DNA of 64,000 nucleotides from Sneathia vaginalis (GTDB taxonomy: Bacteria; Fusobacteriota; Fusobacteriia; Fusobacteriales; Leptotrichiaceae), in the NCBI RefSeq assembly GCF_000973085.1, contig NZ_CP011280.1, positions 708,642 to 772,641 on the forward strand, written 5' to 3'. The notes under the pieces were generated by a model. The model searched no databases. It was not told the DNA's origin and saw only the letters and a list, made by a program, of their open reading frames with translations. Positions 5,904 to 39,095 of this stretch are shown here, piece after piece (the first letter of the stretch is position 1; each line of letters starts with the position of its first letter). The position numbers and the translations under genes are program-made.

Positions 5904-7683
5904 TTACCAACCTCTTTACATAAATTTTACCCTTTAACATATCTGTACCTACAACCATAACTTCTAAATTCTCTCCTAAGTGTGCTTTAATATCATCTAA
6001 TAATTCAGCTTCAATATAGTTTTCAAGATTTACAAAACATCTATCATTATTTATGGAAGTAACCATAGCCTTATACTTCTTACCTAAATTTTTCATCATA
6101 TATTCAGTTAACTTTATATCTCTTGCTAAATACTCCATTTTTTGTGCTCTTCTCTCATTATTAGATATTGTTTTACATATTGTATTTAACTTCTTATTTA
6201 TTCTTTCTTTTTTAAATTCACTCATATACTTATCCATTGATTCTAACAATATTCTATGAACCATTAAATCTGAATATCGTCTTATGGGTGAGGTAAAGTG
6301 AAGATAATTTTTTAATGATAAACCAAAATGCCCCTTATTATCCTTAGAATAAATAGCTTTTTTCATGGAATTTAATATCATTTTATGTATAAAATATCCT
6401 AATTTTGTATCTTTTGTAAGCTCTATTATTTTTTGTAATTTTTTAATTAAATTTTTAGGATTTTTAACTTCATAATTTAGATCTTTTAATTGTTCATTTA
6501 GTGCTTGCATTGATTCTAAGCTTGGTTTTTCATGTATTCTATAAACACAAGGTATTTCATTGTAGAACATATAGTTTGCGACTTGTTCATTTGCAGCTAT
6601 CATAAAGTTTTCAATTAAAATTTCTGCCTTATCTCTTTTTCTTAGCTCAATCTTACAAAGCCTATTATCATCACCAATTTTTAGCTTCAATTCTTGAATT
6701 TCAAATTCTAAAGTCCCTCTTTTTTTTGATAATATAGTCAACTTTTCAGATAATTCTTGCATATTAAATAGCATATCGCTATATTCAAAATCACGTATGT
6801 CATTATTTAAAATTTCATTAACTCCTTCATAAGTTAACTTATGACGACTTCGTATTTTTGATCTTACTATATCACTACTTATAACATTACCATTATCATC
6901 ATACTTAATTATTACACTAAGTGTTAACTTATCTTCATTAGGATTTAGTGAACATAAATCATTAGTTAATCTTTGAGGTAACATAGGTATTACTCTATCA
7001 TACAAATATACAGAATTTGATCTAGTATATGCTTCTTTATCAATTAAACTATCTTTTTTCACATAACTAGATACATCCGCTATAGATACCACTAAATAGT
7101 ATCCATAATCTTTCTTTTCTAAATATACTGCATCATCCATATCCTTTGTATCTGAACCATCTATAGTTACATGGTATAGACTTGTTAAGTCTACTCTTTT
7201 TTCTTTTGTAATAGTTAAATTATCTACTTCGGCTAATACTTCTTTACTAAATTTATGAGGTATATTTAGAGCCTCTATCTTAGAACTTACAACATTTTCT
7301 GCTTTAAGTGTATTCCCATAATTTTTTATAACCTTTGCTTCAGGACTCTTATTTCTATTACCCCAATCATATATTTTTATCTTAACTAAATCATAGTTTT
7401 TTGAATTTAAATTATTTTTTTTCTTAATGTATACATCTTTTAATACCTTATCTAGTACAACAAATGAAAAGTTTTTACTATTTTCTATTACACCAACAAA
7501 TTCATCAGTGTTTCTAGTTATTATCCTATTTACTTTTACTTCATCACCTTTTAATATACTAAAGTCTACTGTGTCTTTATCACATGCAGTTAGCATATTT
7601 TTAGATCTCACAAAATATTTTGTATTATCATTTGAAGTTATAAAGCTAAAGCGTTTATTTACAAATATAACCTCACCTATCAT
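5884..7683 (-). CDS. rnr: Ribonuclease R (short form)
   Basis: A 3'-5' exoribonuclease of the RNase II/R family. The catalytic RNB domain (about residues 160-490) has the acidic cluster DGSDTKDMDDAVYLEK and the motif SPIRRYSDLMVHR. Two short OB/cold-shock-like segments come first and a weak S1-like domain follows (residues 530-590). At 599 aa it is shorter than typical RNase R and lacks the usual N-terminal helix-turn-helix and the long basic tail. It overlaps yqeK by 4 nt and smpB by 20 nt, which supports a role with trans-translation. Confidence 0.93.
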   Translation of the reverse strand: MIGEVIFVNKRFSFITSNDNTKYFVRSKNMLTACDKDTVDFSILKGDEVKVNRIITRNTDEFVGVIENSKNFSFVVLDKVLKDVYIKKKNNLNSKNYDLVKIKIYDWGNRNKSPEAKVIKNYGNTLKAENVVSSKIEALNIPHKFSKEVLAEVDNLTITKEKRVDLTSLYHVTIDGSDTKDMDDAVYLEKKDYGYYLVVSIADVSSYVKKDSLIDKEAYTRSNSVYLYDRVIPMLPQRLTNDLCSLNPNEDKLTLSVIIKYDDNGNVISSDIVRSKIRSRHKLTYEGVNEILNNDIRDFEYSDMLFNMQELSEKLTILSKKRGTLEFEIQELKLKIGDDNRLCKIELRKRDKAEILIENFMIAANEQVANYMFYNEIPCVYRIHEKPSLESMQALNEQLKDLNYEVKNPKNLIKKLQKIIELTKDTKLGYFIHKMILNSMKKAIYSKDNKGHFGLSLKNYLHFTSPIRRYSDLMVHRILLESMDKYMSEFKKERINKKLNTICKTISNNERRAQKMEYLARDIKLTEYMMKNLGKKYKAMVTSINNDRCFVNLENYIEAELLDDIKAHLGENLEVMVVGTDMLKGKIYVKRLVNGNSKK

Positions 7684-23110: not shown

Positions 23111-23638
23111 TTATCTTTTTATAATTTCTAACTTGACTCTAGTTAGACCTCTTTGTACGCTTTCTATTGCTTCAAATGCTGCTCTTGTAAGGTCAATAAC
23201 TCTACCTTGTTTAAAAGGTCCTCTATCATTGATTCTTACAACCACTGACTTACCATTTGCTTGATTAGTAACTCTTACTAAAGTACCAAATGGTAATGTT
23301 CTATGTGCAGCTGTTAATAAACGTGTGTTAAATACTTCCCCATTCGATGTTCTTCTTCCGTTCCATTTTTCACCATAAAATGATGCAGTTCCCGCTTGGT
23401 AGTGAGTAAAACTTCTTGAAACATCAGTATCAACATTTGCAGGTTGGTCATTTTTTAATTCCTCTAAGGATTTAAAAACACCATCGTCGATATAAGTCTT
23501 TTTAATAATTTCTTTAATTATATCGGCTTTAATGTTTGATGATTGACTACTTTCCTTATTTCTATGCTTTGATCCTTTTGCAAAACTTGCTGTAGAAAAT
23601 ATGGATAAAACAAAGAAAATAGTAAGTAATTTCTTCAT
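23111..23638 (-). CDS. rlpA: RlpA-like double-psi beta-barrel lytic transglycosylase
   Basis: A 175-aa exported protein. A signal peptide (residues 1-20, ending in STASFA) precedes a charged linker and a C-terminal double-psi beta-barrel (about 85-175) with AGTASFYGEKWNGRRTSNGE, LPFGTLVRVTN and INDRGPFKQGRVIDL, which carry the conserved His/Asp of RlpA. The family cleaves denuded glycan strands at the septum. There is no lipobox, so it may be periplasmic rather than lipid-anchored. It has its own strong promoter inside the end of the neighbouring gene. Confidence 0.9.
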   Translation of the reverse strand: MKKLLTIFFVLSIFSTASFAKGSKHRNKESSQSSNIKADIIKEIIKKTYIDDGVFKSLEELKNDQPANVDTDVSRSFTHYQAGTASFYGEKWNGRRTSNGEVFNTRLLTAAHRTLPFGTLVRVTNQANGKSVVVRINDRGPFKQGRVIDLTRAAFEAIESVQRGLTRVKLEIIKR

Positions 23639-23661: not shown

Positions 23662-23690
23662 AGTATATCACGATTTCAAATCCGTGTCAA
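23662..23690 (-). promoter_or_regulatory. Near-consensus promoter for rlpA
   Basis: On the minus strand TTGACA, a 17-nt spacer and TATACT, with the -35 box and spacer inside the last codons of the 729-aa gene. It is one of the best promoter matches in the window and makes rlpA independent of the upstream accessory operon. Confidence 0.75.
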
Positions 23691-25857
23691 ATTTCAGCAT
23701 ATACTCATCCGTTACAAACACCTGATCATCGTACCTCGTTGCACATTTATAGAAGATTTTCATCTCTTTAGATATAAAAAATATACGAATAATCGCATTG
23801 TCTATATTATCTAAAAATTCTTGATTAAGTCTTGTATCAAGTTCATCTCTTTCATAAAACTCTTTTTTTAAATCCAAATTAAGACTATATACAATATCCA
23901 TTTCACTGTCTTTTATTTTTATATCAAGCTTAGTAACAGTATCTAATTTGTCTATATACCCTATATCTGTTTTTGTTGTATCTAATACTACCTCATATAC
24001 ATCTTTAAAGTTAGTTGCCTCTATTATATACGCCCTTACATCATAAGTAATGTTATTTAATAGCTTTATCTTAGCTAACTCTTCATCTTCTATGTACTCA
24101 TATATCAACTCTAGTATGTATTCATAGTTATCATTATTTACATCAGTGTATTTTATTATCTTACCTGGTATAAATTCTTTTAAAAGGTTGTAGAAAAGTT
24201 CTGATTTAATTATCTTACCCATTAAACAAACACCCTTATATCTCTTCAATAACTCAATTACAGTAAACTTTTTAAAAAAATTATTTAAAAAGTTATATAA
24301 CTCAAGGCATAAAACATACTCTATCATATTTTTTTCTAAATTTGTACTCTTACAATTTAGATAATTATTTAATTCATCATATGCCTCATTTAATAGTGTA
24401 TAATAATTTTTCTTTATTTCATGATATTTTTCTGATACTAGATTTTGATATTTAAAACAATCCGTACTAAATTTAGATTCTATATCATCATAATCTTTAA
24501 ATAAATCATCCTTTACTGCCCTATATCCTATACTATCTATTTTTTTTATTAAATCGTTTATAGAGCATATGGATATATTGATTTTTAATAACTTTAATTT
24601 TAATAAATAAATTATTTCTTTTATTAAAGTATTAAAGTTTAGGTTATAGTTTACGGTGTTAATATTAGTATTAACTGTAATATCGTAGTTTATATCTTTT
24701 TCAAATATATTAAATTGATTTTCTGATATATTTAAATTATCAAACTCAGAAACAATAGCTAAAAACTTCTCACTTTTGTATGTCTTATTAAGCCTTTTTA
24801 TCTTAGAATATGACAATACAAATGGTAAATCAATATATACAAATCTATCATCTTGTATATTTAGTCCTATGCTGTATATTTTGGTATACCTGCATTTAGA
24901 GTATGCACATATTTTTTTTATCAAATATTCTATAAACTGATTAACAAGTTGCTTTTTTGGTACTATTTTACTTTGCAAATAGTCATCATACACTTCTATA
25001 TTAGAATTTATATCTAAAAAAAATTTAGACATATCTTGAAAACAACTAGCATAAAAATTTAATTCTTTTGCCAGCACCCTATCTTTTGCATTTTCAAAAT
25101 AGTCTATTAAAAAATTGTCATTTTGTATTTTATGAATATACATTAAAAAATCTTTAGTAAAATACTTACAGTACACCTTATTATCAATAAATAAAATGGG
25201 AAAAGGACTTTTAACTTCCTTTAACTTTTCTGCTTTAAGCTCAAACAACTTTATACTATAGCAGGGTATCTTTTCTGGTATTACATCTATTCTTTTATTG
25301 AAATATACATTTCTAACAATATCCCCCATAGTATTTTCAAAAAAGTACATTTTTGGGTTTTTGTAGTATTCATAATCAAAGTTTAATCTTTCAACATATT
25401 CACTATTTATTTTATACTTTCTATACACCTTATCTTCATATTTAGTATCTTCTACTAAACTTAATATACAGTAAACATAGCCATTGTCAGCTGTTATCAT
25501 ACAAATACTAGTTGAAATATGTAAATTTTTAGAAACTAATACATAGTAATTGTCATCCTCACTAAAATCTGCATTTTCAAATATCTTTATACTATATGGT
25601 ACTTGAATATCTGTTGCCTCAATAGGTAGTTCTCTTAACTTCTTGTCAAATAGTTCTTGAAGTCTAAAAAATCCTTCATAATCAAGAGTCAAAATCTTTT
25701 TTTCTGTATTATCTTGTCTATATAGAAGTATTAGGTCTATAAGTTCACTTTTGGTTTTATCACTTGCAAATATATTAATTAATTTTTCATTTATAGCTAT
25801 TTTATATAATTTATCATAGGTCTTTAACTTTAAATCCTCTCTTGTATAGTAACTCAT
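23668..25857 (-). CDS. 729-aa protein of contractile-system-like operon, unknown
   Basis: I do not recognise this protein with confidence. Residues about 8-50 (DLKLKTYDKLYKIAINEKL and then KSELIDLILLYR) fit the helix-extended-helix of SAP/Rho_N-like domains. The remainder is a long mixed alpha/beta protein without membrane helices. Near residues 545-575 the pattern GVCLMGKIIKSELFYNLLKE followed by FIPGKIIKY recalls the C-terminal subdomain of Hsp70/actin-fold proteins, but no nucleotide-phosphate loops are obvious. It is the last gene of the eight-gene operon and overlaps the kinase-like gene by 44 nt, so it probably serves the same apparatus. Confidence 0.6.
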   Translation of the reverse strand: MSYYTREDLKLKTYDKLYKIAINEKLINIFASDKTKSELIDLILLYRQDNTEKKILTLDYEGFFRLQELFDKKLRELPIEATDIQVPYSIKIFENADFSEDDNYYVLVSKNLHISTSICMITADNGYVYCILSLVEDTKYEDKVYRKYKINSEYVERLNFDYEYYKNPKMYFFENTMGDIVRNVYFNKRIDVIPEKIPCYSIKLFELKAEKLKEVKSPFPILFIDNKVYCKYFTKDFLMYIHKIQNDNFLIDYFENAKDRVLAKELNFYASCFQDMSKFFLDINSNIEVYDDYLQSKIVPKKQLVNQFIEYLIKKICAYSKCRYTKIYSIGLNIQDDRFVYIDLPFVLSYSKIKRLNKTYKSEKFLAIVSEFDNLNISENQFNIFEKDINYDITVNTNINTVNYNLNFNTLIKEIIYLLKLKLLKINISICSINDLIKKIDSIGYRAVKDDLFKDYDDIESKFSTDCFKYQNLVSEKYHEIKKNYYTLLNEAYDELNNYLNCKSTNLEKNMIEYVLCLELYNFLNNFFKKFTVIELLKRYKGVCLMGKIIKSELFYNLLKEFIPGKIIKYTDVNNDNYEYILELIYEYIEDEELAKIKLLNNITYDVRAYIIEATNFKDVYEVVLDTTKTDIGYIDKLDTVTKLDIKIKDSEMDIVYSLNLDLKKEFYERDELDTRLNQEFLDNIDNAIIRIFFISKEMKIFYKCATRYDDQVFVTDEYMLKFDTDLKS

Positions 25858-26419
25858 ATTTTATTTCACCTATTTTCCTTATATAATTATGTATATCATC
25901 TGCTTTAATATCAAATTTAACATTAAATATCTTATAACCTATATACGTTAATGAATTTAAGTCATTTATACTGTCTTTTTTATTAAAAGAGGTGGATAGA
26001 GCAAAGTCTATCATATACACCTCTTTATCATGATTTAGCATTAAATTTGCTAAACTTAAATCATTATGAATCAAATTATTAATATGTAAAACTTTAACCA
26101 TATTCAGAATCTTCATGAAAATTTTAAATTTTTCTTCAAACTCCATATATGAGAATTTTAAAGACGCAAGAGTTCTACCATCAATTTTTTTAAATGCTAA
26201 TTTAGTTTTTTGCATATTTTTCTCAACTGATAGTAGTTTAGGTATGAAAGAAATACCTAAGTTTAATAGCCTCATATTTATATCCATTTCATTTTTGACT
26301 ATATGGTCTACAAAATCATATCTGTGATAGTATTCTTTTATGACATAATCGTCAAAGATAAAAACATTCGATATTTTTATATACGTGTCGCTAACTCCTA
26401 TTTCCATATTTGCCACCAT
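25814..26419 (-). CDS. Small Ser/Thr kinase-like protein
   Basis: A 201-aa protein with the core of a protein kinase-like fold. A Lys in DDYVIKEYY and a Glu in KNEMDINMRLLN could form the ATP-binding pair. The catalytic loop is LIHNDLSLANLML (H-x-D-x4-N) and the metal motif is MIDFALS, with DFA in place of DFG. No glycine-rich loop is clear and the C-lobe is short, so it resembles minimal Bud32/RIO/LPS-type kinases. ATG at 26419 was chosen because AAGGAAG lies just upstream; it overlaps the PP2C-like gene by 22 nt. With two FHA proteins nearby, a phospho-switch controlling the apparatus is plausible. Confidence 0.7.
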   Translation of the reverse strand: MVANMEIGVSDTYIKISNVFIFDDYVIKEYYHRYDFVDHIVKNEMDINMRLLNLGISFIPKLLSVEKNMQKTKLAFKKIDGRTLASLKFSYMEFEEKFKIFMKILNMVKVLHINNLIHNDLSLANLMLNHDKEVYMIDFALSTSFNKKDSINDLNSLTYIGYKIFNVKFDIKADDIHNYIRKIGEIKYELLYKRGFKVKDL

Positions 26420-28176
26420 TTGCTTCCTTTTGATTTTTTTATTGCATACGCTAGTTTTTTCTTTAATTTATCTACTTTATCACCAGTGTAATTTATCTTT
26501 TCACAGTATTGTATAGCTCTTTGATATTCTATTATTGCATCATCTATATTATCTTCTTTTATACAACTATCGCCTTTTTGTATACATGAATTGATGCTAC
26601 GTATGATTTGTTCCCGATTATTACTTACCTTTCTTTCTTTTTTTATATTATTGTTTTGACTTTTTTCCAATTCGTCTCTCATTGTTTTCTTTATTTTTTT
26701 GATATGATCACTATTTATTAAAAGCTCTTCTAATAGACCGTGTTTTTTAAATATTAGATTTGACTCTAACATTGCTTCTAGAGCTTCTCTGCATTCATAG
26801 TTATCATTCAAATTAATTGCTTCGGCTCTTAATTCAATAGCATGTCTCCTATCAAACTCCTTGACCTCTTCAAGTTTTTTGATTTTTTCCTTAATCTTCA
26901 TACTATTCAATTCGTCGTCCAACATATCATAACGTTTTAGCATTTCAAAGTAACTATTCAAAGTTAAATTTACATTTTTTTCCTTGTTTTCTTCTGCTTT
27001 TAAATTAAGTGCTTCTATCTCTTCTAATATCTCATTTATCTTTTCATCGCACTCTTGTATTTTGTCCTTAAGACTTATACTTATCTTATACTTTAAGCAT
27101 ATCGTTTCTACGCTTTCAAAAATAGTCTTAGACTTTTTAAACTTAAACTTGTTAAATAATTCAGTAGCTTCATCAATTTTTTTATCTATGTTATCTAAAT
27201 CATTCAACATTGATATATTAAGCACGGCTTCTTTTTTTAAGTTATCAATATTTAGTATTTCTGTATGACTACGAGAAATATTTTCAAATAACTCACGAGC
27301 ATTAGGGAATTTATATTTTTCTACACATTTTTTAGCTAAGTCCATCTTATCTTTTACATCTTTTAAAACTTCAACATCTAATCTTAATGTTTTAATTTTA
27401 TTCTTATCATCAATGAACTTTACCTCTTTTTTGCGTGGTATGATTAGAAATAGTTTTTTGTCTAAATTTTTATATACTTTTTCTAAGTTTTTTAACTCTA
27501 TACTTATATTTTGAACTTCATTGTTTTTTATATATATTTTAAGGTCATTATTAATATTATCTATTTTATTTTCATATCTTTTTATTGTCCAGTAATTAAA
27601 GATTATGTAGATAATAAAGAAAAGAAAAATGAAACTGATTGTTAAGATTTTAAACCATTTTTTATTATTTTTTGTGGCATTATCTATTTGCCTTGTTTTT
27701 TTGATATTAATAGTAAGACATGCTAGTTCTTTTGAAAACAATTTTAGTACATCTCCACTTTCAAGTGCTTTTTCTTCTACTATATATCCATCAAGTTGTT
27801 TAGTCCCCCCTTGATTAATAGCTTCAAATTCTACTACATCATTTCTAAATAACTTTAATGTGATATCTCCTAGAATAACAGCATTAAATGTATTAGCGTT
27901 TGTTTGAATAATAGTTAGAACCTCAAGATTCTTGTAATCCATATTTAAACTCTCTACTATGTACATCATATATTTTGGATTATACTCTAAATCTTCTTCT
28001 ATACACTTACTAGCAATATTTTCTACTATTTGTTTTGATATTTTATCTACTTTCTCATTTTCTTTTACCTTCGAATAAATATATACTACTATTCCATCTT
28101 TTTCAAGATAACCAAAATATGAACTTTCGTTTTCAATAAACTCTGTATTTAGACATTCTAAAACTACATGTTCCAT
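26398..28176 (-). CDS. Membrane-anchored degenerate PP2C-like protein with helical repeat domain
   Basis: A 592-aa protein. Residues 1-165 have the layout of a PP2C phosphatase (SSYFGYLEKDGIVVYIYSK, later VILGDITLKLFRND), but the metal-binding Asp expected near the N-terminus and in the D-G-x-G-G motif is absent, so it is probably a pseudophosphatase. One membrane helix lies at about residues 175-196. The remaining ~400 residues are charged coiled-coil and TPR-like helices, ending IKKSKGSKWWQIWK. The ATG at 28176 was chosen for its GGAG site; it overlaps the previous gene by 13 nt. Confidence 0.6.
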   Translation of the reverse strand: MEHVVLECLNTEFIENESSYFGYLEKDGIVVYIYSKVKENEKVDKISKQIVENIASKCIEEDLEYNPKYMMYIVESLNMDYKNLEVLTIIQTNANTFNAVILGDITLKLFRNDVVEFEAINQGGTKQLDGYIVEEKALESGDVLKLFSKELACLTINIKKTRQIDNATKNNKKWFKILTISFIFLFFIIYIIFNYWTIKRYENKIDNINNDLKIYIKNNEVQNISIELKNLEKVYKNLDKKLFLIIPRKKEVKFIDDKNKIKTLRLDVEVLKDVKDKMDLAKKCVEKYKFPNARELFENISRSHTEILNIDNLKKEAVLNISMLNDLDNIDKKIDEATELFNKFKFKKSKTIFESVETICLKYKISISLKDKIQECDEKINEILEEIEALNLKAEENKEKNVNLTLNSYFEMLKRYDMLDDELNSMKIKEKIKKLEEVKEFDRRHAIELRAEAINLNDNYECREALEAMLESNLIFKKHGLLEELLINSDHIKKIKKTMRDELEKSQNNNIKKERKVSNNREQIIRSINSCIQKGDSCIKEDNIDDAIIEYQRAIQYCEKINYTGDKVDKLKKKLAYAIKKSKGSKWWQIWK

Positions 28177-28649
28177 ACGAAATGTTCTCCACAAAATTTA
28201 ACAAAAACAAGTTTTGTATCGCCTATTTCTATTAAACTATAGTTCTCAAGTTGTGTTGTTTCATATACCGCCTTCTTATTTAAGTATACAATATTACCTG
28301 CTTGACCTGGAGAAATTACAAAAACTCTTTGTTTTTCATTGTATGTGATAATGAAGTTATCAGTTTTTTCTATTTTTTTGTCTAATATACATACGTCCAT
28401 ATCTTCAGTACTACCTATAAAGTTTCTTTTATCAACTAATCTATAGTCTTTACCCTTTTCTATTCCTTCAATACAGATAAGCCACCCTACAACTGGAACT
28501 ATTTTTATAGGAATGTATGCAACCGTTCCTCTTTCTTCATCTGTTTCCAATAAGTCTTGTGTTTTATTAACTGTATTTTCACAATAAGGACAAAACTTTA
28601 TACTTGTACTGTCATAAAAATGACCTTTTTTACATCTTTCTAATTTCAT
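28164..28649 (-). CDS. Zinc-ribbon and FHA-like domain protein
   Basis: A 161-aa soluble protein. The N-terminus carries CKKGHFYD and CPYCEN, a short zinc-ribbon. Residues about 60-155 have FHA topology (GWLICIEGIEKGKDYRL, NFIGSTEDMDVCI, IEIGDTKLVFVKF), but the Ser and Asn that bind phosphothreonine are not clearly conserved. The combination of zinc ribbon and FHA is known from type VI-like and signalling loci in other bacteria. It likely reads or scaffolds the kinase/phosphatase-like partners encoded next to it. Confidence 0.65.
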   Translation of the reverse strand: MKLERCKKGHFYDSTSIKFCPYCENTVNKTQDLLETDEERGTVAYIPIKIVPVVGWLICIEGIEKGKDYRLVDKRNFIGSTEDMDVCILDKKIEKTDNFIITYNEKQRVFVISPGQAGNIVYLNKKAVYETTQLENYSLIEIGDTKLVFVKFCGEHFVWNM

Positions 28650-28661
28650 AATTATACCCTT

Positions 28662-29324
28662 TTAATTTAGGAGTATTTTTATACCATGAATATGTATAAT
28701 ATCTCCTACTAATATATTCTCACCCTTAAATGCTATTAAATTAATTTTCCTATTGTTTGTTTTTATTACATCCGTACCATTTTTAGAGCCCTCATCTACA
28801 ACATAGAATTTATTGTCTTGTTTATAGATTCTTGCATGTCTCCTACTTACAAAATCACTATTTATTTGGTCTGTAAGATCTATATCCACAATGGCACTTT
28901 TTGAATTTTTACCTATAACGTATTCATTCTTCAATACCTTATATATATGCTTATCATCGCCGTAATCATCTAAGACTATTATTTCATTAATATTATATTT
29001 CTTTCTAATTAACTCTCTTTTTTTATCTTTTTCACGTTTATCAAATTCATAAATCTCTTTTTCCATTTTTTTGGAAATAACCTTATTTATGAACAACACA
29101 TAAACGCTATTGTACATTGTAAAAAATGTTAGAAGTAACAAGAATGTATTTTTAGGTTTTTGTGAAATTATGCCGTATATTATTACAATAATAATCATCA
29201 ATATTACTACTGTATACTCAGGTTTTAAAAAGTTTTTCCTAATAGAGATTTTTTTTATGTCCTTAGACTTTACATTTTTAAATATATATCTAAAAACTCT
29301 ATTCAAGATAAAAAGATTCCTCAT
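28662..29324 (-). CDS. Membrane protein with canonical FHA domain
   Basis: A 220-aa protein with two membrane helices (about residues 36-52 and 57-78) and a cytoplasmic FHA domain (about 125-220). The FHA signature is complete: EYVIGKNSKS, VDIDL, SDFVSRRHARIY and VDEGSKNGTDV, so phosphothreonine binding is likely. In type VI secretion systems an FHA protein controls assembly through threonine phosphorylation, and the same logic is inferred here. It overlaps the upstream gene by 26 nt. Confidence 0.8.
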   Translation of the reverse strand: MRNLFILNRVFRYIFKNVKSKDIKKISIRKNFLKPEYTVVILMIIIVIIYGIISQKPKNTFLLLLTFFTMYNSVYVLFINKVISKKMEKEIYEFDKREKDKKRELIRKKYNINEIIVLDDYGDDKHIYKVLKNEYVIGKNSKSAIVDIDLTDQINSDFVSRRHARIYKQDNKFYVVDEGSKNGTDVIKTNNRKINLIAFKGENILVGDIIHIHGIKILLN

Positions 29325-30096
29325 AATCCTCTTTTTCCTTCTTTTCCTTTTTCATATTACCCTTTAATATACTTGCTAATTTTTTTATTATCTCACTGTT
29401 TGTAATTTCGTTAATATTAATAGAAATCCCTAGCTTATTTTCTAAGTATGCAATTAATAATTCCTTTTTAACTATGCTATTTAAACATAGAAAGATAAAA
29501 TTTAAATCAATATTTTCTAATCTAAGTTTTTGACTTGCAGTATATGCCCATTTTTTTAAGATTATGGGTGATAGTGTTGAAAATTCACTATTACTTGCAC
29601 TATACTTTTGATTAATTAAACTTATCGCATTAAATTCATCTCTAAATTCTTCAAAATAGTTTGTTTCATCACGTATTTGTGCACCATGTCTTAAAATTAC
29701 TTCAAATAACAAGAATTCATTTTCTACTTGTTCATCACTTTTAACTAGAGTTAAACTTATTACATTTGAAAAGTATAGTTCTGTATTATTGCATTTGACA
29801 TCAACTATACACTTATATCTACCTTCATCTGTTGGTAAGCCTATCTTTAAGTCTGAATTTAGCCAAAATATCTTTTTATTTATTTTTATAAGGCCCTTTT
29901 TAATTAAAAAAGTATTTTCATCACCTATATATTTTATTTCAAACCCAGATACTACACCATCACTTGAAGAAGTGTACTTAGCATTTATGTAGTCTATTAG
30001 ATTAAAGCTTATTAAATTTAAACTATCACTTGTAATTAACCCATAATGTTCAAATTTGGGTATTTTTGTTGAAAAACTAGTTTGCACTATAACCAC
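29299..30096 (-). CDS. 265-aa possible baseplate/tail protein
   Basis: No secure family. The N-terminal half has a beta-rich pattern seen in tail and baseplate proteins (a segment with VVSGFEIKYIGDENTFLIKK followed by GLIKINKKIFWL, then RYKCIVDVK). The C-terminal half is helical and ends in a very charged tail (KKEKKEKEDYEESFYLE). It lies between the tube-like gene and the FHA gene, overlapping the tube-like gene by 20 nt. Position after the sheath and tube genes suggests a baseplate or adaptor role, but this rests on context. Confidence 0.45.
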   Translation of the reverse strand: MVIVQTSFSTKIPKFEHYGLITSDSLNLISFNLIDYINAKYTSSSDGVVSGFEIKYIGDENTFLIKKGLIKINKKIFWLNSDLKIGLPTDEGRYKCIVDVKCNNTELYFSNVISLTLVKSDEQVENEFLLFEVILRHGAQIRDETNYFEEFRDEFNAISLINQKYSASNSEFSTLSPIILKKWAYTASQKLRLENIDLNFIFLCLNSIVKKELLIAYLENKLGISININEITNSEIIKKLASILKGNMKKEKKEKEDYEESFYLE

Positions 30097-30496
30097 CTTC
30101 TACAGCTATAGAACTAATTTTTTCTTTTTTCTGTCTCAATAAAATTCTAAATACTCCTGTACCATTTTTTACATTGAAACTTTCTTCATAATCAACTATG
30201 AATATATTAGGTAAATTTACTTTTCTGATAACTGTCCCTGCTGAAACTACTTCAAATGTTAAATCCTTATATGCATCTTGTGACTCTGATGGAACTAATG
30301 ACCACGAACACAGCTTTTTGGTCATATCATCCTTTTCATTAGTTACCTTACCGCTTATTTCAAGACTAACATTTAGGTCAGTTGCCCTAGCATTAGAGTC
30401 ATTAGGTGTATCTGATATATACCTTACATCCAATACTCTATCTTTTTCTAATACTATTTCATCGTTATTACCTTTTATCACTACTTTAAACCCCAT
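30077..30496 (-). CDS. Tail tube (Hcp)-like protein
   Basis: A 139-aa all-beta protein, the usual size for Hcp and phage tail tube subunits. The order fits the tube fold: an early strand GFKVVIKGNND, a polar loop with NARATDLNVSLEISGKV, a central WSLVPSE, a strand pair DLTFEVVSAG, and the end strand GTGVFRILLRQKKEK. The ATG at 30496 follows a GGGGG ribosome site; an in-frame GTG lies 9 nt upstream. It comes 20 nt after the sheath-like gene, the position of tube genes in contractile tails. Identity is inferred; no direct motif proves it. Confidence 0.55.
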   Translation of the reverse strand: MGFKVVIKGNNDEIVLEKDRVLDVRYISDTPNDSNARATDLNVSLEISGKVTNEKDDMTKKLCSWSLVPSESQDAYKDLTFEVVSAGTVIRKVNLPNIFIVDYEESFNVKNGTGVFRILLRQKKEKISSIAVEGGYSAN

Positions 30497-30516
30497 TATT
30501 ATCACCCCCTTTCAAT

Positions 30517-32640
30517 TTATTCTTTAGAATTTATCATAAGATTCAAGTGCTTCACATCACCTGCAAAGCTTAAATTTAAACTGCATGTATTAGAGTCTAT
30601 TGAATATGTCATATCATCTTCAGCTCTTAATATTGCATTTACATACATTGAATTTTTTGACCATAAACTTTTAGTACTATTAGGACTTGAGCTAAAGAAG
30701 AAATTAAGCCTATCTTCTTTAAAATCTGTTGTTTCATATCTCATAATCCTTTCTATATACGTACATGTCAATGTTTTGTATATAGGTTCATAGTTATATC
30801 CTCCAGATTTATTCATACTTCTAGCCTTATACACAGTTACATTATCAACAACATTCCCGTTATATATTGCATTCTCACTTGCAAATACAAAACCATAATT
30901 AGCCTCATTTATACTATTTTTAATATCAACTGTATATCCTGAAATTTCCTTAGGTAAGGTTGTTTTTATTTCAAAACTATTCTCGCTAGATTCAATATTT
31001 ATTCTAACTCCTGGTATGCTAGGATTTACATTTTTAAACCTATCTTTTAGGTATCCTGGACACTGATAAGCTGATATTAATCCAGCTGCAGCATAGCTTG
31101 CATCTATATATAGTCCATTAATGTAATAGAATAGCTCTTTATTCTCATCACCCTTAGTCATTCCTATAGTTACTTTAGACTTATTCTTAGGTATTATTGT
31201 AAAGTTTGGAAATACTGGTATAAGGTATTCAGAATATGTTTTATCTTCTAAAACCATAGTTTTTTTCTTGTACTCTTCAACACCATTTATTGAAAAAGTT
31301 TTGAAATCTGTTTTATCGCTTGCTTGGAAGTTGAAAAATAGTTGTATCTTGTATTTTTCTAATAAGTCTGCAATATTTAAAATATCATTAAACTTATTCT
31401 TTTCTAAAATTTCTTCCGTATCGCTACCCATAAACTTTTTCTTTATTTTTTGATTTTCTATACTTACGTCATAATTAACATTAGGTAATATTCCAAACCA
31501 TATAGTATTTGTAAAATCATTCTTATTATTTACAGTATTTAAATATATTGCCAATGCCTTTTTGCTTTTAGGATTCATCAGTAAATCTACTTTAAAGTTT
31601 GTAATTAATAGTTTAGGTTTCATTTGCTTATACTTCGTGTTGTATTGATCAAAGAAAATTTTAATACCTAATACCTTTTTTACTAATTCTTTTGATATAG
31701 TTATAAAGTCATCTTGCGATTGCTTATATATCTCAAGGTATGAATTGTAATTTGTAATTTCTTTTTCAATATCTATTTCATTTAATGTAACACTATTTGG
31801 AACATAAGATCTTGATATTAAATTAGCTACATATGTACTCTTATACTCGACAGTTTCGTTATAGTCGTCTATAAAAAGTTGAGCTAAGTTTTCTGTGTTT
31901 TTTTGATTTGACTCAATTTGTAAAAGATTAGAAGTTGTATTAATTTCTGTAATTTCAAGGCTACCATTTTCAGCTATTGTTAATAGCCCAGGCTTTATCC
32001 TATCAAGCTTATTTAACGGATTATTAGACTTATCTAGCGATAATCTAACCTCTATATCCTCTATTGCTAATGGTAACATAGAAAGTACATTGTTATAGTT
32101 TTTAGATGCCTCTAAAAACGCATAATTCAACTTATCACCAATTTCCTTTTTTTCAGGATTCTTATCATCTAAATTCTCATACTTATCATAAAGATAATTT
32201 ATTTCTTTTCTTGATTGTTTTAGATTCTCTATTATTTTCTTAGGTGATAACAACTCTAATATATCTGTATAATTAAAGTTAACATTCTTAACTTTATTAT
32301 TATTACGTGCATCCAATAAGGCTAATAGCATTCTAAAAAATGCATTATCCTTTCCAAGCCTTATCTCTGTCACACATTCACTGGGTATATTTACATCTTT
32401 TTCTAATGTATAACATACCTTATTTTTATTTGCATCAAAATAACTATATATAGTAGGCTCAAATTTAATTAAGAAATCATCAAAGCTTTCTACTAATAAT
32501 TCTTTGTTAATCTCTTCTATCATGTCGTCACTCAAGCTATTTTGAAGTTCTGTTTCCCCGATTATAGTTAATAAATTTAGCTTATCAGGATTAATTTGTT
32601 CGAACAATATTGTTCTATTTGTCTGCGATATTTTTTCCAT
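30517..32640 (-). CDS. Contractile sheath-like protein (TssB-TssC type fusion)
   Basis: A 707-aa protein, the first gene of the operon. Residues about 50-112 match the TssB pattern: SFDDFLIKFEPTI followed ~40 residues later by LLALLDARNN. The central part includes a helix and strand like the TssC core (LEKYKIQLFFNF). At about residue 509, GLYIDASYAAAGLISAYQCP recalls the tail-sheath segment found near the sheath C-terminal domain, and the last ~80 residues are strand rich. A fusion of small and large sheath subunits would explain the length. The ATG at 32640 was chosen for its GGGAGGG site. Pattern-level evidence only. Confidence 0.55.
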   Translation of the reverse strand: MEKISQTNRTILFEQINPDKLNLLTIIGETELQNSLSDDMIEEINKELLVESFDDFLIKFEPTIYSYFDANKNKVCYTLEKDVNIPSECVTEIRLGKDNAFFRMLLALLDARNNNKVKNVNFNYTDILELLSPKKIIENLKQSRKEINYLYDKYENLDDKNPEKKEIGDKLNYAFLEASKNYNNVLSMLPLAIEDIEVRLSLDKSNNPLNKLDRIKPGLLTIAENGSLEITEINTTSNLLQIESNQKNTENLAQLFIDDYNETVEYKSTYVANLISRSYVPNSVTLNEIDIEKEITNYNSYLEIYKQSQDDFITISKELVKKVLGIKIFFDQYNTKYKQMKPKLLITNFKVDLLMNPKSKKALAIYLNTVNNKNDFTNTIWFGILPNVNYDVSIENQKIKKKFMGSDTEEILEKNKFNDILNIADLLEKYKIQLFFNFQASDKTDFKTFSINGVEEYKKKTMVLEDKTYSEYLIPVFPNFTIIPKNKSKVTIGMTKGDENKELFYYINGLYIDASYAAAGLISAYQCPGYLKDRFKNVNPSIPGVRINIESSENSFEIKTTLPKEISGYTVDIKNSINEANYGFVFASENAIYNGNVVDNVTVYKARSMNKSGGYNYEPIYKTLTCTYIERIMRYETTDFKEDRLNFFFSSSPNSTKSLWSKNSMYVNAILRAEDDMTYSIDSNTCSLNLSFAGDVKHLNLMINSKE

Positions 32641-32669
32641 AATCCCTCCCATATTTGCTTCTTGATATT

Positions 32670-36783: not shown

Positions 36784-37935
36784 ATGAAAACTTTTAAATA
36801 TTTATTAATGCAAATGTTCTATTGGGCATGTTTTTGTGCAATATTCTCATTTGCAAATCCGTACCTTAGCTCTAAGGGCGTACCAGTTTCAACAATAGGA
36901 ACAATTTTAGCAATAGCTTCTATACTATCAGTAATAATACAACCTTACTTAGCTAAACTGATAGACACATATGAATTCTTTACAGTTAGAAGCTCAATTT
37001 TGCTATCACTAATTGTTCCAGTATTTGCAATAATTTTAATGATAATATGTGATAATCCACTAATACTATACACTAGCTATACTATAGCTTTATGTGGATT
37101 TTTAAATGTACAAACTTTTATGTATCCCTTCATATTTGAATATATGAATAGAGGCTACAAAGTTAATTTTGGTTTTGCTAGAGGTATGGGCTCAATATCA
37201 TACGCCATAGCCTCATATACACTAGGAACATTAAGTGCAAAATACTCACTTAACTTTTTACCCATGTATTTTCTAGTGTTAACAATTCTAGTTATCCTTA
37301 TGATACTAACATTTGAACCACTTGGTAAAATTAAAAAGCATGAAGAACATCTACCTGATGTAAGTCTTCGCGATTTTTACAATAGAAACAAGAGTTTCTT
37401 TGTTGTACTTTTAGCAATTGTTTTAATTTTCTTTACTGCTACTGCATTTAATAATTTCTTAAGAAATATTTTAGTTAGCATAAACTATAGTAACTATGAA
37501 GTAGGTATTTGTTTCACACTATCTTCTTTAAGTGAATTCCCAGTTATGGCATCAATACCATTACTACACAAAAAATTCAGTTACTACACTCTTTTCTTAG
37601 TATCAGCAGTAGGATTTAGTTTAAAGGCAATTATGCTGGTTATTGGTGCTTTATCTGGTAATATATACTTAATCTATTTTTCACAACTATTCCAATCACT
37701 AGGTTTTGCTATATACATACCAGTTTCACTATTCTACATAACAGATACTTTTGAAACAAGAGATGTAATTAAAGCTCAAGCATATATAGGTACTGCTCTA
37801 ACATTAGGAAGTATTTTAGGTAACTACATAGGTGCACAAATTTGTCAAAATATTTCTATCTTTGCACTATTGGTTATAAGCACAATAATTTCAATGTTAG
37901 GTACTGCATTAATAGTTAAATGTGCTAAAAAGTGA
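36784..37935 (+). CDS. MFS transporter, copy 1 of a tandem pair
   Basis: A 383-aa, 12-helix major facilitator protein of the LacY/nucleoside-symporter-like (MFS_1_like) type. Motif-A-like residues appear in QPYLAKLIDTYEF. It starts 11 nt after rho with a GAGGTAAT ribosome site. It is about 92 percent identical to the next gene, and the differences cluster at residues about 210-255. The substrate is unknown. Confidence 0.88.
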   Translation: MKTFKYLLMQMFYWACFCAIFSFANPYLSSKGVPVSTIGTILAIASILSVIIQPYLAKLIDTYEFFTVRSSILLSLIVPVFAIILMIICDNPLILYTSYTIALCGFLNVQTFMYPFIFEYMNRGYKVNFGFARGMGSISYAIASYTLGTLSAKYSLNFLPMYFLVLTILVILMILTFEPLGKIKKHEEHLPDVSLRDFYNRNKSFFVVLLAIVLIFFTATAFNNFLRNILVSINYSNYEVGICFTLSSLSEFPVMASIPLLHKKFSYYTLFLVSAVGFSLKAIMLVIGALSGNIYLIYFSQLFQSLGFAIYIPVSLFYITDTFETRDVIKAQAYIGTALTLGSILGNYIGAQICQNISIFALLVISTIISMLGTALIVKCAKK

Positions 37936-37943
37936 GGTAATGA

Positions 37944-39095
37944 ATGAAAACTTTTAAATATTTATTAATGCAAATGTTTTATTGGGCATGTTTTTGTGCA
38001 ATATTCTCATTTGCAAATCCATACCTTAGCTCTAAGGGCGTCCCAGTTTCGACTATAGGAACGATTTTAGCAATAGCTTCTATACTATCAGTAATAATAC
38101 AACCTTACTTAGCTAAACTGATAGACACATATGAATTCTTTACAGTTAGAAGTTCAATTTTGCTATCACTAATTGTTTCTGTGTTTGCAATAATTTTAAT
38201 GATAATATGTGATAATCCACTAATACTATACACTAGCTATACAATAGCTTTATGTGGTTTTTTAAATGTACAAACTTTTATGTATCCCTTCATATTTGAA
38301 TATATGAGTAGAGGCTACAAAGTTAATTTTGGTTTTGCTAGAGGTATGGGTTCAGTTTCATACGCTATAGCCTCATACATACTAGGAACATTAAGTGTAA
38401 AATACTCACTTAACTTTTTACCTATGTATTTTCTAGTATTAACAGTTCTAGTTATTCTTATGATACTAACATTTAGACCACTTGGTAAAATTAAAAAGCA
38501 TGAAGAACATCTACCTGATGTAAGTCTTCGTGATTTTTACAATAGAAACAAAAGTTTCTTTGTTGTACTTCTATCTGTTGTACTACTTTTTTTCACTCAT
38601 AATGTACTTAATAATTTTTTAAGAAATATATTATTAAGCGTAAATTATGGAACTTATGAAGTAGGCGTTTGCTATACAGTAGCTTCTATAATTGAATTTC
38701 CAGTTATGGCATCAATACCATTACTACATAAAAAATTCAGTTACTACACTCTTTTCTTAGTATCAGCAGTAGGATTTAGTTTAAAGGCAATTATGTTAGT
38801 TATTGGTACTTTATCTGGTGATATATACTTAATCTATTTTTCACAACTATTCCAAGCACTAGGTTTTGCCCTATACATACCAGTTTCATTATTCTACATA
38901 ACAGATACTTTTGAAACAAGAGATGTAATTAAGGCTCAAGCATATATAGGTACTGCTCTAACATTAGGAAGTATTTTAGGTAACTACATAGGTGCACAAA
39001 TTTGTCAAAATATTTCTATTTTCGCACTATTGGTTATAAGCACAATAATTTCAATGTTAGGTACTGTATTAATAATTAAATGTGCTAAAAAGTGA
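37944..39095 (+). CDS. MFS transporter, copy 2 of a tandem pair
   Basis: A 383-aa paralogue of the preceding gene. By eye about 30 positions differ and 17 of them fall in one stretch of about 45 residues (from VVLLSVVLLFF to SIIEFPV in this copy), covering a membrane helix and adjoining loop. Elsewhere the copies are nearly identical, which suggests recent duplication or gene conversion with local diversification, perhaps for a different substrate range. Confidence 0.88.
   Translation: MKTFKYLLMQMFYWACFCAIFSFANPYLSSKGVPVSTIGTILAIASILSVIIQPYLAKLIDTYEFFTVRSSILLSLIVSVFAIILMIICDNPLILYTSYTIALCGFLNVQTFMYPFIFEYMSRGYKVNFGFARGMGSVSYAIASYILGTLSVKYSLNFLPMYFLVLTVLVILMILTFRPLGKIKKHEEHLPDVSLRDFYNRNKSFFVVLLSVVLLFFTHNVLNNFLRNILLSVNYGTYEVGVCYTVASIIEFPVMASIPLLHKKFSYYTLFLVSAVGFSLKAIMLVIGTLSGDIYLIYFSQLFQALGFALYIPVSLFYITDTFETRDVIKAQAYIGTALTLGSILGNYIGAQICQNISIFALLVISTIISMLGTVLIIKCAKK

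What the first reader, a model, noticed from the sequence alone, without database searches (positions are those of the whole stretch)
23668..32640. Eight-gene operon resembling a divergent contractile injection / type VI-like system
Sheath-like, tube-like and possible baseplate proteins are followed at once by two FHA proteins, a PP2C-like and a kinase-like protein, in one operon of mostly overlapping genes. Canonical T6SS use the same FHA-kinase-phosphatase logic. What is missing is notable: no spike (VgrG/PAAR), no ClpV-type ATPase, no TssJLM membrane complex and no effectors are encoded here, so the system is either minimal, scattered over the chromosome, or a different intracellular contractile machine. 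The gene order and overlaps are seen in the sequence; the identities are inferred from pattern.
Basis: partly seen in the sequence, partly recalled or inferred. Interest (0 to 1): 0.9.

Follow-up and report, generated by a model that had tools for sequence, protein, structure and literature searches.

The report
Type VI-like injection machine beyond Gram-negatives
[quoted passage not shown] its spike and toxin genes lie elsewhere on the same chromosome, and close relatives fill hundreds of Gram-positive genomes, where such a machine had been suspected but never pinned down in the literature I could search.

Summary
The 707-aa product folds like the T6SS sheath: Foldseek's top six PDB hits are all VipA/VipB, and the next hit is noise. 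The 139-aa product belongs to the Hcp/TssD tube family. The 265-aa product models as a TssK-like or receptor-binding-type baseplate protein. The "missing" spike is in the same 1.33-Mb genome, 387 kb away: a C428 homologue, a VgrG and a DUF4280 (PAAR-like)-CHAP effector. Sheath and DUF4280 co-occur in 31 of 34 sheath-bearing Fusobacteriota (Fisher p=1e-18). A profile search found 346 relatives of the sheath; the 80 best lie in Bacillota and Fusobacteriota, mostly in Paenibacillus, Brevibacillus and Clostridium, usually as one operon. [quoted passage not shown] this operon is very probably its engine. Differences from known T6SS: no TssM or ClpV; a probable TssB-TssC fusion; and a dedicated J-protein plus Hsp70-like ATPase, lost and decayed together in the window's lineage. 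It is a new T6SS variant. Its function (interbacterial toxin injection) is inferred, not shown.

The parts
30517..32640 (-). Contractile sheath protein, 707 aa (711 aa from the upstream ATG at 32652); probable natural TssB-TssC fusion
   Evidence: AF2 (36-row alignment, pTM 0.65) then Foldseek PDB: top six hits are T6SS VipA/VipB sheaths, E 7e-4 to 4e-3, prob 0.98-1.00; the next hit is E 0.25. N-terminal ~205 aa against TssB by hhalign scores 22.3, against a maximum of 21.1 in 100 column shuffles. No Pfam hit.
30077..30496 (-). Inner tube protein (Hcp/TssD family), 139 aa
   Evidence: PF17642 TssD is matched by 25 of 29 members of the family (best E 9e-5; window copy E 0.011, below Pfam's cut-off); the only PDB hit of the profile is Hcp1, E 0.037
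29299..30096 (-). Baseplate protein of TssK / receptor-binding-protein type, 265 aa, too short to hold the whole of TssK
   Evidence: AF2 pTM 0.58; the top 16 Foldseek PDB hits are all tail, baseplate or RBP proteins: phi812 baseplate E 7e-5, six TssK chains E 3e-3 to 1e-2, SPP1 gp22, IglD; viral library gives RBP/tail-fibre hits
28662..29324 (-). FHA protein 1, two transmembrane segments then an FHA domain; candidate membrane anchor
   Evidence: PF00498 E 7e-11; two TM-like segments in 62 of 73 homologues
28164..28649 (-). FHA protein 2, soluble in most homologues, N-terminal zinc-ribbon-like CxxG..CPYC followed by an FHA-like domain
   Evidence: PF16697 E 5e-9, FHA E 0.03; 43-53% identity across Fusobacteriota homologues
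26398..28194 (-). Degenerate PP2C-like domain, one transmembrane segment and helical/TPR-like C-terminus; candidate membrane anchor
   Evidence: Homologues keep the PP2C motif (NKNNDYFGY...VADG) but the window copy reads ESSYFGY...YSKV; one TM segment in 75 of 76 homologues
25814..26419 (-). Small Bud32/RIO-like protein kinase, catalytic loop HNDLSLANL present
   Evidence: RIO1 E 1e-9, Pkinase E 5e-8; Bud32 model E 2e-11, below cut-off; motif read from sequence
23668..25857 (-). Decayed member of an operon-specific Hsp70/actin-like ATPase family (729 aa)
   Evidence: Homologues in Bacillota and large-genome Fusobacteriota carry DCGGGTTDL and LTGQSC (most also DFGT[ST]), and PF00012 HSP70 E 4e-4; all three motifs are gone in the window and in L038, L039, L041, which also lack the J gene
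23111..23638 (-). RlpA-type lytic transglycosylase, 29 bases downstream; neighbour that may belong to the same transcript
   Evidence: TIGR00413 E 4e-40; also directly downstream of the operon in L041 (63% identity) and L038 (46%)

Best explanation
The operon encodes the sheath, tube, one baseplate protein and the FHA/kinase control module of a cell-anchored contractile injection machine of the type VI secretion class. The other parts (a C428 homologue, VgrG and a DUF4280 PAAR-like tip fused to a CHAP-like cell-wall hydrolase) are encoded 387 kb away on the same chromosome. Likely working: VgrG and the DUF4280 tip with its effector sit on a baseplate that contains the TssK-like protein; Hcp-like rings and the fused sheath grow on it; the transmembrane FHA1 and PP2C-like proteins, in place of TssJLM, tie it to the cytoplasmic membrane; kinase phosphorylation read by the FHA domains licenses firing; contraction drives the spike into a neighbouring cell. 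In the ancestral version a dedicated J-protein and Hsp70-like ATPase recycle or assemble the sheath. The window's lineage has lost that pair and presumably relies on housekeeping ClpB/DnaK. Shown here: sheath, tube and baseplate folds or families, linkage of the two loci, and gene decay. Inferred: assembly, anchoring, firing, targets, and the role of Hsp70/J.
For: Sheath fold matches only T6SS VipA/VipB; tube is in the Hcp/TssD family; 265-aa protein is TssK/RBP-like; VgrG (Phage_GPD 5e-5, Phage_base_V, DUF2345, each below Pfam's cut-off) and DUF4280 (5e-15) plus CHAP in the same genome. The 344-aa gene three genes upstream of that VgrG is a homologue of C428, which in Bacillota sits inside the sheath operon. 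Sheath with DUF4280 31/34, sheath with C428 30/34 among 98 Fusobacteriota, p about 1e-18, and p = 2e-5 / 3e-6 when collapsed to genera. DUF4280 found in 12 of 12 sheath-bearing genomes tested. Bacillota operons run sheath-tube-J-FHA-FHA-PP2C-PP2C/TM-C428-P231-Hsp70like-P265-p199-VgrG-p207-Imm11like-DUF4280-toxin-SUKH. No relative in 50,697 phage or 72,556 plasmid records.
Against: No TssE/gp25, TssK-family or TssM match in the genome by profile, so most of the baseplate and the anchor are unassigned. Sequence-only searches do not reach known sheaths and TssC is not detected by profile comparison (12 of 100 shuffles score as high or higher). Both AF2 models are of moderate confidence and their alignments have low TM-scores. 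Regulatory enzymes are decayed in this genome, so the machine could be losing function here. No experiment.
Confidence: 0.84

Rival explanations
1. It is an extracellular contractile injection system (eCIS) or a cytoplasmic CIS like that of Streptomyces, released by lysis or acting in programmed death, not a membrane-anchored T6SS.
For: Some Gram-positives are known to carry eCIS/CIS; the window genome lacks TssM; VgrG and the tube do not discriminate between the classes. [quoted passage not shown]
Against: Sheath fold hits T6SS sheaths and no eCIS or phage sheath. No CDC48-like AAA+ gene was seen in the operons and no phage record matches. The operon has several membrane proteins and an FHA/kinase/PP2C module as in T6SS. 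SUKH and Imm11-like immunity genes next to the toxin imply kin-cell targets.
Confidence: 0.1
2. It is a decaying or domesticated remnant in this lineage: sheath and tube are still made but the machine no longer fires, or serves an internal structural role.
For: Absence of the J-protein, decay of the Hsp70-like ATPase and of the PP2C motif, absence of PP2C2 and VWA, shortened C428 homologue (344 vs ~425 aa). A sheath relic with a stop codon exists in G076.
Against: The sheath is intact and 72% identical to its congener. VgrG and a DUF4280-CHAP effector are intact ORFs in the same genome, and the congener G092 keeps DUF4280 and a C428 homologue. FHA and kinase motifs are intact.
Confidence: 0.06

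Closest known systems
Type VI secretion system, canonical T6SS-i
   Same: VipA/VipB-type sheath fold, Hcp-family tube, VgrG, PAAR-like tip fused to an effector, TssK-like baseplate fold, FHA + kinase + PP2C post-translational control
   Different: One fused sheath polypeptide; no TssM, gp25 or TssK by profile; no ClpV; a J-protein/Hsp70-like pair in the operon; found in Bacillota (mostly monoderm) and Fusobacteriota; the spike uses DUF4280 rather than classical PAAR
Francisella T6SS-ii (FPI)
   Same: DUF4280 tip (IglG), no ClpV, uses general ClpB for sheath disassembly (PMC5481754); IglD is among the hits of the 265-aa model
   Different: Francisella has an IglA-IglB sheath and a TssM homologue (PdpB); it has no J/Hsp70 pair known to me in its island
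Bacteroidota T6SS-iii
   Same: The tube matches PF17642, the TssD model that from my knowledge covers Bacteroidota Hcp
   Different: No sequence match of the sheath to any TssB/TssC model; different accessory genes
T6SS-iv / haloarchaeal T6SS-like CIS
   Same: T6SS mode of action without TssJLM or ClpV in T6SS-iv (PMC10433429); alternative membrane anchor in the haloarchaeal system (PMC11566945)
   Different: Those are eCIS-lineage machines; here the sheath fold is nearest to T6SS sheaths
Orphan Phage_GPD-VgrG + DUF4280 (PAAR_H2) gene pairs of Firmicutes
   Same: The same spike genes; [quoted passage not shown]
   Different: PMC8651086 found no conserved T6SS or eCIS genes nearby; here the engine is identified and shown to co-occur with, and often neighbour, the spike genes

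Membership tests
T6SS | TssB/TssC (VipA/VipB) contractile sheath | tested here: met
   By fold: top six PDB hits, prob 0.98-1.00; N-terminus like TssB at 0/100 shuffles. By Pfam profile: no hit
T6SS | Hcp/TssD tube | tested here: met
   25 of 29 members match PF17642, best E 9e-5, window copy E 0.011 and below cut-off; Hcp1 6bdc E 0.037
T6SS | VgrG spike | tested here: met
   L032:17214-18455 in the own genome, Phage_GPD 5e-5, Phage_base_V, DUF2345 (each below Pfam's own cut-off)
T6SS | PAAR or PAAR-like tip | tested here: met
   DUF4280 E 5e-15, above cut-off, fused to a CHAP-like domain
T6SS | TssK baseplate-to-membrane connector | tested here: inconclusive
   265-aa protein is TssK-like by fold but there is no match to PF05936 in the genome and it is much shorter than TssK
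T6SS | TssE (gp25) | tested here: not met
   No PF04965 match at E<=1 in the genome; a divergent one is not excluded
T6SS | TssF, TssG, TssA, TssJ, TssL | not tested
T6SS | TssM/IcmF membrane complex | tested here: not met
   No PF06761 match at E<=1
T6SS | ClpV/TssH recycling ATPase | tested here: not met
   A single full-length Hsp100, ClpB-like, at C1:309547; Francisella T6SS also lacks ClpV
T6SS | FHA/kinase/phosphatase (TPP) control module | tested here: met
   FHA and kinase present and intact in motif; PP2C recognisable in relatives, decayed in the window
eCIS / CIS | Phage/eCIS-type sheath | tested here: not met
   No eCIS or phage sheath among the significant Foldseek hits
eCIS / CIS | Tail fibre, tape measure, Cis15 AAA+ ATPase | tested here: inconclusive
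   None seen in the operon proteins scanned with Pfam; genome-wide search not done
Prophage or tailocin | Homology to phage tail genes | tested here: not met
   Sheath: no match in 50,697 phage records; no PHROG hit
Hsp70/J chaperone pair (operon-specific) | J-domain with HPD and Hsp70-type phosphate motifs | tested here: met
   In relatives: J domain E 7e-28; HPD in 60 of 60; both motifs in 42 of 50 P729-type proteins. In the window: not met

The most novel reading that the evidence does not exclude
A fifth, largely Gram-positive branch of T6SS: a membrane-anchored machine that fires through a monoderm wall, with a fused TssB-TssC sheath, an FHA1/PP2C transmembrane anchor instead of TssJLM, and a dedicated Hsp70/J pair doing the sheath recycling or assembly that ClpV does elsewhere.
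Probability: 0.5. Interest if true: 0.93.

Novelty: new variant of a known kind. Interest (0 to 1): 0.86.

Why it matters
T6SS are described as Gram-negative machines with four subtypes (PMC10433429). [quoted passage not shown] The operon family supplies the missing sheath, tube and control genes, is present at well over 300 bacterial genome loci including culturable, non-pathogenic Paenibacillus, Brevibacillus and Clostridium, and makes the question directly testable by one gene deletion. It would change the picture of interbacterial warfare in soil, gut and oral communities, raise the problem of how such a harpoon crosses a thick wall, and suggest an Hsp70/J system as an alternative sheath recycler.

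Tried and rejected
Pfam, NCBIfam, PHROGs and PADLOC scans of the sheath found nothing useful. A PDB sequence search with the sheath profile found only spurious hits. C428, P231 and the ATPase-family profiles gave no real PDB hits and stay unassigned except for the ATPase motifs. hhalign of the C-terminal part against TssC was not above shuffles, so the TssC identity rests on fold. Anti-phage kinase systems (PD-T4-6) were considered because of PADLOC hits of the kinase and rejected: generic kinase similarity. eCIS, Streptomyces-type CIS and prophage readings were considered and put below T6SS. Literature: searches for a Gram-positive T6SS with this sheath found none in the held open-access library, but bioRxiv and most subscription journals are not held, so an existing description cannot be excluded.
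Full report
OBSERVATION. The window is G000:C1:708642-772641 of a single-contig 1.33-Mb genome. By length match its relative G071 is Leptotrichia hongkongensis (2,261,073 bases), so the window's family is Leptotrichiaceae. Eight minus-strand genes fill 23668-32652; five of seven junctions overlap.

SHEATH. The 707-aa protein has no Pfam, NCBIfam or PHROG match. With a 36-row alignment AlphaFold2 gave pTM 0.65. Foldseek against the PDB returned six T6SS VipA/VipB sheath entries (E 7e-4 to 4e-3, probability 0.98-1.00) and then nothing below E 0.25. TM-scores are low (0.23-0.41), so the match is local rather than a full superposition. The N-terminal 205 residues look like TssB: hhalign against nine TssB sequences (fetched) scores 22.3, above all of 100 column shuffles and the reversed control, while the C-terminal part against TssC is not above shuffles. 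I therefore read the protein as a probable TssB-TssC fusion, with the TssC identity resting on fold.

TUBE. PF17642 (TssD/Hcp) is matched by 25 of 29 family members (best E 9e-5, window copy 0.011). The only PDB sequence hit of the family profile is Hcp1 (E 0.037). Many Bacillota operons carry two tube genes.

BASEPLATE. The 265-aa protein models as helix, beta-sandwich and helical bundle. Its top 16 PDB matches are all tail, baseplate or receptor-binding proteins, among them six TssK chains and Francisella IglD; the viral library gives receptor-binding proteins. It is much shorter than TssK, so it cannot hold all of TssK's domains. Because canonical TssK ties the baseplate to TssJLM through its C-terminal head (background knowledge), a missing head would fit the absence of TssM. 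That is inference.

THE MISSING SPIKE. A profile search of the own genome found Phage_base_V at C1:351945. Around it (C1:349265-355580) lie a 344-aa protein, a 184-aa protein, a 133-aa protein, a 413-aa VgrG (Phage_GPD 5e-5, Phage_base_V, DUF2345), a 264-aa protein with one TM-like segment, and a 447-aa DUF4280 (PAAR-like, E 5e-15) protein with a CHAP-like C-terminus (E 0.008, with WC and GHC residues as in amidases). The 344-aa protein is a homologue (E 2e-13) of C428, which in Bacillota is encoded inside the sheath operon. This ties the two loci of this genome to one machine.

DISTRIBUTION AND CO-OCCURRENCE. In 98 Fusobacteriota genomes the sheath occurs in 34, DUF4280 in 34 and C428 in 32. 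Sheath and DUF4280 share 31 genomes (p 1e-18; p 2e-5 by genus). The per-genome p-values ignore shared ancestry; the genus-level ones reduce but do not remove it. A profile scan of GTDB genomes confirmed 346 loci, of which the best 80 were examined: Paenibacillus, Brevibacillus, Aneurinibacillus, Clostridium, Acetivibrio, Lachnospiraceae, Pelosinus, Halanaerobiales and others, at about 43-49% identity. All of 12 sheath-bearing genomes tested, 11 of them Bacillota and one Leptotrichia, have DUF4280. A quick tree keeps Fusobacteriota and Bacillota largely apart. No phage or plasmid record matches.

OPERON IN BACILLOTA. Typical order is kinase, VWA (reverse strand), sheath, tube, J-protein, FHA1, FHA2, PP2C2, PP2C/TM, C428, P231, Hsp70-like (the window's 729-aa gene), P265, p199, VgrG, p207, an Imm11-like protein, DUF4280, VgrG-like/toxin and SUKH immunity (E 8e-21). 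In several Clostridia DUF4280 and VgrG directly follow PP2C/TM. Effector-immunity pairing points to interbacterial antagonism (inference). Membrane candidates are FHA1 (two segments), PP2C/TM (one), PP2C2 (one) and VWA (two). VWA-TM next to a kinase recalls PpkA of Pseudomonas, a kinase with an extracellular VWA domain (PMC3224232).

HSP70/J PAIR. The 729-aa gene family has DCGGGTTDL and LTGQSC motifs, most members also DFGT[ST]N, and HSP70 profile matches below Pfam's cut-off (E 4e-4 and 6e-3). A J-domain protein is in 81 of 93 loci, with HPD in 60 of 60 inspected. In the window and three relatives (L038, L039, L041) the J gene is absent and all ATPase motifs are lost together, against 41 loci where J and both scored motifs are present. 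The four come from one family, so this is at most a few events. ClpV is absent; ClpB is present. In Francisella, whose T6SS also lacks ClpV, ClpB disassembles sheaths (PMC5481754). My proposal is that the J/Hsp70 pair serves sheath recycling or assembly and that housekeeping ClpB/DnaK replaced it here. It is a hypothesis.

PP2C DECAY. Relatives read NNDYFGY...VADGFD; the window copy reads ESSYFGY...YSKV, so the metal site is lost. The kinase and FHA motifs are intact.

COMPARISON. It works like a T6SS and meets sheath, tube, VgrG and PAAR-like criteria. It fails TssM, ClpV and gp25 tests by profile. I therefore file it as a new variant rather than a member of subtypes i-iv. Known literature: PMC5349215 and PMC8651086 suggested an unidentified Gram-positive translocation system from DUF4280/VgrG. 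I found no paper in the held library that identifies its engine; preprints and most subscription journals are not held.

LIMITS. Function is not demonstrated; both models are of moderate confidence; C428, P231 and p199 are unassigned; only selected families were searched genome-wide; loci used for operon comparison are the 80 best of 346.

Noticed in passing
window 23111-23638: RlpA lytic transglycosylase gene 29 bases downstream of the operon; the same gene is directly downstream in L041 and L038. It could open peptidoglycan for the machine.
   Followed up: partly
window 36784-39095: Two tandem, nearly identical 383-aa MFS-type transporter genes, apparently a recent duplication.
   Followed up: no
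L033:237-1580 (G000:C1:354236-355579): DUF4280 protein with CHAP-like C-terminus, a candidate peptidoglycan-hydrolase effector, followed by a gene that looks like an outer-membrane barrel by eye.
   Followed up: partly
G091, G070, G072 and other Fusobacteriota: Up to 11 DUF4280 genes per genome, many in open frames of 1000-1500 aa: a large unexplored set of candidate polymorphic toxins.
   Followed up: no
G076:C1:1178653: Sheath relic with a stop codon; the system is being lost in some Leptotrichiaceae genomes.
   Followed up: no
L111:10380-12434: Second, very divergent sheath-like ORF (30% identity, extremely long branch) directly after the Hsp70-like gene in a Lachnospiraceae contig.
   Followed up: no
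L156:6574-7480 (Paenibacillus ferrarius): SUKH (SMI1/KNR4) immunity gene at 6574-7008 and a second one that looks alike by eye at 7022-7480, next to a 975-aa VgrG-like/toxin protein at the end of the operon.
   Followed up: partly
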